From: Candidatus Moraniibacteriota bacterium
GTDB lineage: Bacteria > Patescibacteriota > Minisyncoccia > Moranbacterales > UBA2206
Assembly: GCA_030679995.1 (NCBI GenBank)
Contig: JAUXSK010000022.1
Location: forward strand, 1 to 49,054
Direction of reading: 5' to 3'
Length of the DNA: 49,054 nucleotides
Shown here: piece by piece, positions 12,209-21,696 of the stretch
Layout of the letters: every line of letters starts with the position of its first letter
Position numbering within the stretch: position 1 is the first letter of the stretch
Translations under genes and position numbers: made by a program
Notes under the pieces: model-generated
Seen by the model: the letters and a program-made list of their open reading frames with translations, nothing else
Told to the model about the DNA's origin: nothing
Database searches by the model: none

Positions 12209-12283
12209 CGGGGTGTGGCTCAATAGGTGGAGTGCCGGAGTGCAACCCGGAGATCGGAGGTTCGAGTCCTCCCATCCCGACCA
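12209..12283 (+). tRNA. tRNA-like gene with GCA anticodon and a defective anticodon stem
   Basis: A cloverleaf can be drawn with an encoded CCA end: acceptor CGGGGTG/CATCCCG, D stem GCTC/GAGT, T arm GGAGG-TTCGAGT-CCTCC, discriminator A. The anticodon arm is odd. With T33 at 12241 the anticodon is GCA (Cys), but the stem 27-31/39-43 has only two of five pairs. Shifted, it makes a 4-bp CCGG/CCGG stem with an 8-nt loop. Adding one T between 12246 and 12247 would give a perfect 5-bp stem, 7-nt loop and 5-nt variable loop, so one base appears missing. C1-G72 and A73 are not typical for tRNA-Cys. It may be a true variant, a pseudogene, or an assembly error. Confidence 0.6.
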
Positions 12284-19877: not shown

Positions 19878-20240
19878 ATGAAAATTTTATTCGTTGAAGA
19901 TGAACCGGCTGTACTGGATGTGTTATCAAGGATGCTGGAAATATTTGGAAAACATGAAGTCATTGGCAGGACAAGCAGTACGGAGGCTCTTAATTTGTTT
20001 TCACGAAATCCGGAGTTGTTCGATGTGGTAATAACGGATCAGACGATGCCGAATATGAAGGGGACTGAATTGGCACAAAGAATTCTTTGCGTGCGGCCTG
20101 CTATGCCGATCATACTGTGTACGGGGTATGATACGGAGGATCTTAAAAAAGAAGCGAATGCGTTGGGAATTCAAGGGTTCGTTTCAAAACCTTCAACATT
20201 TATGGACATATTGAAAATAATTGATGATGTTGTTAAATGA
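19878..20240 (+). CDS. Stand-alone response regulator receiver domain (CheY-like)
   Basis: The 120-residue protein is a single receiver domain. It has the acidic pair in FVEDEP, the phospho-acceptor Asp in VVITDQTMPNMKG, the switch Thr in ILCTGY and Lys in FVSKPS. There is no output domain, and no histidine kinase is encoded nearby, so it presumably acts through protein-protein contact. Its ATG follows GGAGG at 19863-19867, one of few clear Shine-Dalgarno sites in the window. A 24-codon frame (ATG 19807) ends in a TGA that overlaps this ATG. Confidence 0.92.
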   Translation: MKILFVEDEPAVLDVLSRMLEIFGKHEVIGRTSSTEALNLFSRNPELFDVVITDQTMPNMKGTELAQRILCVRPAMPIILCTGYDTEDLKKEANALGIQGFVSKPSTFMDILKIIDDVVK

Positions 20241-20369
20241 GGTAATCTATTTGCAGATATCGGGATGTCGATTGGATAACCTCTTCTTTTTTATGAATCC
20301 CGGGTGGATCGCTTGATAAGGTTGTTGTATTTAAGATGCGATGACGGGGTTTTATAAAAACTTTATAAG

Positions 20370-20403
20370 GCCGGCTAGAACCAATTAGCCGGCTGTTTTT
20401 TTT
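20370..20403 (+). terminator. Rho-independent terminator
   Basis: GCCGGCTA (20370-20377) pairs with TAGCCGGC (20386-20393), followed by TG and a run of T residues. It lies 130 bp after the response regulator stop and could end that transcript or a small RNA. Confidence 0.75.
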
Positions 20404-20451
20404 GTTGCGAATGGGCTTGCTTCGCGAGTCCGGAAGTTTTTCGAATAAATA

Positions 20452-20619
20452 ATAAAAGGGGGTTGGGAAGCGCTTGCGCTTCCCAACCCCAGGGGATCAG
20501 TGAAGACGGGCACATCCGTCTTCGTGGTGCCGGAGAAACGGAGGAGAAACTCAGGCACCACAAGATACCATAGCACATCTATGCGGAATCTTACAAGTTT
20601 TTAAAATAAAAAGGCACGT
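20452..20619 (-). ncRNA. Candidate structured RNA with promoter and terminator, about 165 nt
   Basis: On the minus strand a promoter at 20654-20626 is followed by three contiguous hairpins and then a terminator. The first is AAGAT/CATAG pairing with CTATG/ATCTT (20592-20562). The second is an 8-bp stem GTGGTGCC/GGCACCAC with a 22-nt loop (20561-20524). The third is an 8-bp stem GAAGACGG/CCGTCTTC (20523-20502, given in + orientation). The terminator is a perfect 14-bp stem (20490-20459) followed by CTTTT on the minus strand. The first three helices abut with no unpaired base, so they could stack coaxially. No protein frame is convincing. I match it to no known RNA family. Confidence 0.55.
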
Positions 20620-20625
20620 TTTTTA

Positions 20626-20654
20626 ATTATACATCAAAAATGATATTTTGTCCA
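20626..20654 (-). promoter_or_regulatory. Minus-strand sigma70 promoter of the RNA candidate
   Basis: Read on the minus strand: TGGACA (20654-20649), exactly 17 bp, TATAAT (20631-20626). One mismatch in twelve hexamer positions. Confidence 0.65.
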
Positions 20655-20827
20655 GAGTAGGCCTTTTTAGGTTTTATCCGAAGCCCATTTGGCAATGGAA
20701 AAATTGGCGGGAAGAACGGGTATTGCTAAATAAATGATTCGGTGGTTAGATTGAAGCAGTCGCTTAATAAATAAAAAATAAAAACCAGATAAATTTTTAT
20801 TAAAACAAAACAACAAGGGAGGGAGAG

Positions 20828-21085
20828 ATGGATTGGTGGTATGCGGGCGTAGGAATTTATTTTTTCATCGGTTTTGAACTGGGCATTTTAGTAGCAATTT
20901 ATTTTTATATCAATTCTGAAGGATTGCGCAGGATGATTGCAGAAAAATATCCGGAAACAGGACGTTTTTTTATGTGGCTGGTAGTATCGATGATATGCGG
21001 AGTCATCATTGTCTTTTGGCCATTCATCCTAGCCATTCTTGTCGTCAGGCATATGTTTTGCGATAAGCGCTGCAAAGAGGCGTGA
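20828..21085 (+). CDS. Small two-helix membrane protein, unknown
   Basis: This 85-residue protein has two hydrophobic segments (about 5-28 and 47-73) around a charged loop (EGLRRMIAEKYPETGRF) and a Cys/Lys/Arg tail (MFCDKRCKEA). It begins after GGGAGGGAGAG, a strong Shine-Dalgarno site. No family is recognised. A terminator follows closely, so it is a single-gene unit. Confidence 0.6.
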   Translation: MDWWYAGVGIYFFIGFELGILVAIYFYINSEGLRRMIAEKYPETGRFFMWLVVSMICGVIIVFWPFILAILVVRHMFCDKRCKEA

Positions 21086-21240: not shown

Positions 21241-21603
21241 TCAGAAAATCGGCACGCCGACATCGAGAAGCAAGTTGTCATATCTTTTAGGTCTCGGTAG
21301 CGACCCGCGTGTTGTATGCCATTTTTTCAGGGATTCGCCAAAGATCCAGTTTTGTCCAAGGAAGAATACCATATATTCATACGGTATTCCCGAAAGATTT
21401 TCGGCATTGATCTGCTTGCAAGTTACGGCGGCGATTTCGCCGATTTCGGATTCCTTGTCCGTAACCATCTCGATGGCAGCTGCCCATTTAATGGCTAATC
21501 TGATAGCCGTGGGAATCAATAATCCTCTGTTTTCCGCGGCTTGTTTGGCGCGTCTTAATGTTTTGGCTGATACCTTGGCAGCCACTGTCGGTGTCGCAGA
21601 CAT
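21241..21603 (-). CDS. Hypothetical cytoplasmic protein (minus strand)
   Basis: A 120-residue protein starting MSATPTVAAKVSAKTLRRAKQAAENRG-like, with a helical N-terminal half and an aromatic C-terminal half (YEYMVFFLGQNWIFGESL). The ATG at 21603 is preceded by CGGAGGAAATAAT, a strong Shine-Dalgarno site, and the gene is followed by a minus-strand terminator. TTGACA with a poor TACGCT box 18 bp on lies upstream on the same strand. These signals make it a better gene than the overlapping + strand frame (21203-21622). No family is recognised. It is one of only two minus-strand protein genes in the window. Confidence 0.6.
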   Translation of the reverse strand: MSATPTVAAKVSAKTLRRAKQAAENRGLLIPTAIRLAIKWAAAIEMVTDKESEIGEIAAVTCKQINAENLSGIPYEYMVFFLGQNWIFGESLKKWHTTRGSLPRPKRYDNLLLDVGVPIF

Positions 21604-21696
21604 ATTATTTCCTCCGTGTTGAATTTTTAACAAAAAACTATCTCAGACATTCACATTGGAATAGCGTAACAGGAACAGTGCTAAATTGTCAATCCG

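What the first reader, a model, noticed from the sequence alone, without database searches (positions are those of the whole stretch)
20452..20654. Undescribed minus-strand structured RNA with its own promoter and terminator
In a 587-bp gene-free stretch the minus strand carries TGGACA-17 bp-TATAAT, then three perfect or near-perfect hairpins that abut without a spacer, then a 14-bp stem followed by U residues. Every element of an independent RNA gene is present, and no coding frame is credible. The 22-nt loop of the second hairpin contains the repeated motif GAGAAAC (+ strand: GGAGAAACGGAGGAGAAAC), a candidate interaction site. I cannot match it to 6S, tmRNA, SRP or RNase P RNA.
Basis: partly seen in the sequence, partly recalled or inferred. 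Interest (0 to 1): 0.75.

Follow-up and report, generated by a model that had tools for sequence, protein, structure and literature searches.

The report
Small regulatory RNA with anti-Shine-Dalgarno loop
A short, strongly conserved non-coding RNA gene of a small-genome bacterium displays, in a hairpin loop, a sequence resembling the ribosome's mRNA-docking sequence, so it probably switches off translation of chosen genes; it is a new RNA family of a familiar kind, found so far in only two species.

Summary
In detail: the minus strand of window 20654-20447 carries a near-consensus promoter (P1, TGGACA-17-TATAAT), stable hairpins and an intrinsic terminator. The segment folds far better than shuffles (z -6.5), is single-copy in the genome and matches no Rfam family. 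The only other available genome of the genus holds it in the same place. There P1 (90%) and the RNA core (89-100% per element) are islands of conservation in intergenic DNA that is mostly 43-75% identical, so this is very probably a real small RNA gene. Two corrections. The "interaction site" is best read on the RNA strand: an invariant 14-nt loop UUUCUCCUCCGUUU resembling the 16S anti-SD tail (CACCUCCUUUCU). Most likely mechanism: a trans-acting sRNA that blocks translation initiation by pairing with Shine-Dalgarno sequences. One orthologous gene has the same 11-nt complementary SD in both species. Two sequences give too little covariation to prove structure; no expression data exist. New family, known kind.

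The parts
20626..20654 (-). Promoter P1: TGGACA-17-TATAAT, with TG directly before the -10 (TTTTTGATGTATAATT)
   Evidence: 11 of 12. 90% identical in G001, flanks about 60%. The pattern ACAAAAN5TTTTTGRTGTATAATTA (up to 3 mismatches) hits 72 of 131 genomes of the order; the reversed control hits 11 genomes.
20567..20596 (-). Probable second promoter P2: TTGTAA (20596-20591), 18-bp spacer, extended -10 TGcTATGGT (-10 20572-20567)
   Evidence: TGTGCTATGGTA identical in G001; -35 TTGCAA with a 16-bp spacer there. Inferred from conservation; below the strict promoter scan threshold.
20562..20592 (-).
   Evidence: z -1.3; 5' half 61% identical; pairing lost in G001.
20524..20561 (-). Hairpin 2: 8-bp stem, 1x1 mismatch, 3 inner pairs, 14-nt loop UUUCUCCUCCGUUU (20549-20536)
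   Evidence: z -5.1. 36 of 38 positions identical in G001; the two changes move the internal mismatch by one pair; loop invariant.
20502..20523 (-). Hairpin 3: GAAGACGG-AUGUGC-CCGUCUUC
   Evidence: 22 of 22 identical in G001.
20491..20501 (-). Single-stranded linker containing UGAUCCCCU
   Evidence: 10 of 10 aligned positions identical plus one deletion in G001.
20447..20490 (-). Intrinsic terminator: 14-bp stem (20490-20459), tetraloop, U-rich tail
   Evidence: one compensatory G-C to A-U pair and a changed loop in G001.
19878..20240 (+). Convergent neighbour: single-domain response regulator, with its own terminator at 20369-20394
   Evidence: PF00072 E 5e-22; same place in G001; terminator.
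20828..21085 (+). Divergent neighbour: 85-aa putative membrane protein found only in this genus
   Evidence: 2 of 34 family genomes; no Pfam match.

Best explanation
A stand-alone small RNA gene, transcribed on the minus strand from P1 (about 165-170 nt) and probably also from P2 (about 110-115 nt, starting at hairpin 2) and ending at the 20490-20459 terminator. The RNA acts in trans: the invariant 14-nt loop of hairpin 2, UUUCUCCUCCGUUU, which resembles the 16S anti-SD tail, pairs with purine-rich Shine-Dalgarno regions and blocks ribosome binding. Flanking loop bases and perhaps the C-rich linker (UGAUCCCCU) give selectivity. Shown by sequence: the gene's parts, their conservation, the loop sequence and its complementarity to SDs. 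Inferred: transcription, P2, SD pairing, repression, target identity.
For: Fold z -6.5. Only the promoter and core are strongly conserved: hairpin 3 and linker 100%, hairpin 2 95%, P2 -10 region 88%, P1 90%, terminator 89%, against 43-75% for most flanking intergenic DNA and 60-85% for neighbouring genes. Same synteny in G001. Single copy. Rfam negative at gathering and lax thresholds. P1 belongs to an order-wide promoter class. The 16S tail in G001 and 11 other family genomes is GGAUCACCUCCUUUCU (own genome has no assembled 16S). Of 9 GGAGGAG..ATG sites in G000 and 26 in G001, one pair is orthologous (408-aa protein, 69% identical): both read UGGAGGAGAAGGU-AUG, giving 11 contiguous pairs with the loop, in a nearly identical 5' UTR. 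In G001 another start matches the hairpin 2 apex with 12 perfect pairs. At 400 crude gene starts, runs of 8 or more pairs occur in 1.5% against 0.36% of random windows. Loop or single-stranded C-rich motifs that bind SDs are established in LhrC, RsaE, FsrA and RNAIII (PMC4132741).
Against: No expression data. Only two homologues; one compensatory pair, which is within the shuffle control. Any anti-SD-like loop pairs with many SDs: the mean energy over 400 starts is no better than for shuffled loops of the same composition (80 of 100 as good). The conserved candidate target could simply keep a strong SD in a conserved UTR. The U-tract is short (4 U before the first A). RNA chaperones such as Hfq were not searched for.
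Confidence: 0.55

Rival explanations
1. A real small RNA whose hairpins bind a protein or the ribosome (sponge or scaffold) rather than mRNA SD sequences. The repeated GUUUCUCC or the AUGUGC loop would be the binding site.
For: Hairpin 3 and the linker are as invariant as hairpin 2, so more than an SD-pairing loop is constrained; the loop has two GUUUCUCC repeats; average SD pairing is not better than for shuffled loops.
Against: The loop's resemblance to the 16S anti-SD tail and the orthologous target.
Confidence: 0.25
2. A small protein: the minus-strand ORF 20578-20375 (67 aa) or a 26-aa start of it.
For: Open frame in the window; its ATG and first 26 codons are also open in G001.
Against: A one-base deletion truncates it to 26 codons in G001; the four substitutions in those codons split evenly between silent and changing; no SD before the ATG; in the window the frame runs through the terminator hairpin.
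Confidence: 0.04
3. A leader or attenuator (riboswitch-like) of a downstream minus-strand gene.
For: Promoter, hairpins, then terminator is the layout of an attenuator.
Against: No minus-strand gene follows: the next gene is the convergent response regulator with its own terminator, and this holds in G001.
Confidence: 0.04
4. A chance palindromic intergenic region or mobile repeat.
For: The plus strand folds as well; only two genomes carry it.
Against: Single copy, syntenic, more conserved than neighbouring genes, not in phages or plasmids.
Confidence: 0.05

Closest known systems
LhrC family sRNAs of Listeria (with RsaE, FsrA and RNAIII, the C-rich SD-binding sRNAs)
   Same: Short intergenic RNA, stable hairpins, intrinsic terminator, C-rich loop and C-rich single-stranded stretch complementary to Shine-Dalgarno regions (PMC4132741).
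   Different: No Rfam or detectable sequence relation; core motif CUCCUCC in a 14-nt loop rather than UCCC; different hairpin order; function untested; unrelated host with a genome of about 1 Mb.
16S rRNA 3' tail (anti-SD)
   Same: The loop UCCUCCGUUUCU resembles the tail ACCUCCUUUCU of this lineage.
   Different: Not rRNA: a separate gene with one extra G and different flanks, presented in a hairpin.
6S RNA
   Same: Similar size range, intergenic, own promoter.
   Different: No long single hairpin with a central bubble; no Rfam match.

Membership tests
Trans-acting SD-blocking (C-rich) sRNA, as a functional kind | Independent transcription unit: promoter and intrinsic terminator, no ORF | tested here: met
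   by sequence only, no transcript seen.
Trans-acting SD-blocking (C-rich) sRNA, as a functional kind | Unpaired C-rich segment complementary to SD regions, conserved | tested here: met
   Loop UUUCUCCUCCGUUU predicted essentially unpaired and invariant.
Trans-acting SD-blocking (C-rich) sRNA, as a functional kind | Pairs with specific targets more than expected | tested here: inconclusive
   One conserved orthologous site, but the global energy test is negative.
Trans-acting SD-blocking (C-rich) sRNA, as a functional kind | Represses translation of the target in vivo | not testable with these tools
   Needs a reporter assay.
Any Rfam 15 family (6S, tmRNA, SRP, RNase P, LhrC, RsaE and others) | Covariance model match at gathering score | tested here: not met
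   Only a tRNA in the window; a lax search of the region gives only chance-level matches (best E 0.97, Vault, far below its cutoff).
Structured RNA supported by covariation | Several compensatory changes in the stems | tested here: inconclusive
   Two sequences, one double change in 33 pairs, 246 of 500 shuffles as good.

The most novel reading that the evidence does not exclude
A genus-specific RNA that mimics the 16S anti-SD tail and acts globally, masking strong SD sequences (or competing with 30S subunits for them) under the control of an order-wide strong promoter class, in an ultra-small bacterium.
Probability: 0.12. Interest if true: 0.65.

Novelty: new member of a known kind. Interest (0 to 1): 0.4.

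Why it matters
In the papers that could be searched here, no study of small regulatory RNAs in small-genome candidate-phylum bacteria turned up (a limited search). A well-defined sRNA gene with a conserved SD-complementary loop and a named candidate target would make post-transcriptional control in such organisms testable. It also exposes an order-wide promoter consensus useful for annotating that lineage.

Tried and rejected
blastn over 34 family genomes: outside the genus only promoter-region and other short matches. Covariance model R1 over 131 genomes of the order: only the two genus members (strict filters, so diverged copies could be missed). The 18-mer loop pattern in the order gave many two-mismatch hits; those inspected, all on the plus strand of their loci, showed no matching hairpin or terminator. 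One exact 18-mer in IMG/VR lacks the flanking stems: chance. L093 has a P1-like promoter and hairpins but precedes a gene: not a homologue. Phages and plasmids: none. The whole genome was not available as a file; 400 kb of stretches served for the target survey.

Full report
What is there. On the minus strand of the 587-bp gap 20241-20827 lies a complete small RNA gene by sequence: P1 (TGGACA, 17 bp, TATAAT; 20654-20626), hairpins 20592-20562, 20561-20524 and 20523-20502, a linker, a 14-bp terminator stem 20490-20459 and a U-rich tail. The segment folds at z -6.5 with no shuffle as low. The promoter match alone is not better than chance (4 found, 3.5 expected in the scanned region). The sequence is single-copy in the genome; Rfam finds only a tRNA in the window and nothing meaningful in the region with lax limits.

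Homologues. The window belongs to a 994-kb, 31-contig genome (G000). The one other genome of the genus (G001) carries the element between the same neighbours, a convergent response regulator and a divergent 85-aa putative membrane protein. A covariance model of the core found nothing more in 131 genomes of the order, blastn found only promoter-region and other short matches elsewhere in the family, and phage and plasmid collections had none. It is therefore genus-restricted as far as these data go. The divergent membrane protein is genus-restricted within the family too.

Conservation profile. Terminator 89%, linker 100%, hairpin 3 100%, hairpin 2 95%, P2 -10 region 88%, P1 90%. In contrast: 5' half of hairpin 1 61%, leader 61% with an 11-base gap, intergenic DNA upstream 76% and downstream 47-65% (apart from the response regulator's own terminator, 85%), neighbouring coding regions 60-85%. 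Conservation thus drops at the edges of the RNA core and returns at P1. Hairpin 1 is weak (22 of 200 shuffles fold as well) and its pairing is lost in G001. Its 3' half contains the invariant TGTGCTATGGTA, which fits an extended -10 (TGnTATGGT) with TTGTAA or TTGCAA 18 or 16 bp upstream. P2 would start the RNA at hairpin 2. P2 is an inference. The two changes in hairpin 2 move an internal mismatch by one pair (C-G then UxC in the window; CxA then G-C in G001), so the stem keeps 11 pairs; one terminator pair changes from G-C to A-U. With two sequences this is not significant covariation (246 of 500 shuffles as good).

P1 is credible. ACAAAAN5TTTTTGRTGTATAATTA occurs in 72 of 131 genomes of the order with up to three mismatches, against 11 genomes for the reversed pattern. 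In this genus it occurs exactly twice per genome: before the RNA and before a gene for a 178-aa protein without a significant Pfam match.

Not coding, not an attenuator. The 67-codon frame is cut by a one-base deletion in G001, lacks an SD, and runs through the terminator. No minus-strand gene follows the terminator in either genome.

How it probably works. The hairpin 2 loop, UUUCUCCUCCGUUU on the RNA, is invariant. The 16S tail of G001 and of 11 other family members is GGAUCACCUCCUUUCU, so the loop offers an anti-SD-like sequence. GGAGGAG followed by ATG occurs 9 times in G000 and 26 times in G001. Exactly one orthologous pair is seen among the sites fetched (30 of the 35): a 408-aa protein of unknown family, where both species read CCCCUGGAGGAGAAGGU-AUG within a nearly identical 5' UTR. 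The loop forms 11 contiguous pairs there, G-U included. In G001 another start (L231) matches the hairpin 2 apex with 12 perfect pairs. The neighbouring membrane gene also has a complementary SD (-15.8 and -18.4 kcal/mol). Long complementary runs are more frequent at starts than in random windows (1.5% against 0.36% for 8 or more), but counts are small, and the average pairing energy over 400 crudely called starts is no better than for shuffled loops. The step from loop to target is therefore plausible, not shown. Precedent: C-rich unpaired motifs of LhrC, RsaE, FsrA and RNAIII bind SDs and block initiation (PMC4132741).

Verdict. RNA gene real: about 0.85. SD-pairing sRNA: about 0.55. A new RNA family, of a known kind.

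Noticed in passing
L003:1490-2160 (G000:C7:12016) and L010:1500 (G001:C22:10211): A 178-aa protein without a significant Pfam match shares the P1 promoter element with the RNA; these are the only two copies per genome in this genus. A second promoter-like element (TTGACT, then TATCAT) follows in both species.
   Followed up: partly
72 of 131 genomes of the order: A near-invariant promoter class ACAAAA-N5-TTTTNGGTGTATAATTA with an extended -10 and a T-tract, present in one to a few copies per genome.
   Followed up: partly
L234:1400-1513 (G000:C8) and L241 (G001:C14): The 5' UTR and first codons of a 408-aa protein of unknown family are nearly identical between species although the whole protein is only 69% identical: a possible regulatory leader of its own.
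   Followed up: partly
window 21241-21633 (-): A 130-aa protein matches Pfam Tad4 (type I Thoeris inhibitor, E 1.4e-8, above cut-off), unexpected in a cellular genome; its SD ACGGAGGA also matches the RNA's loop.
   Followed up: no
window 12209-12283 (+): A tRNA gene whose anticodon ARAGORN cannot assign.
   Followed up: no
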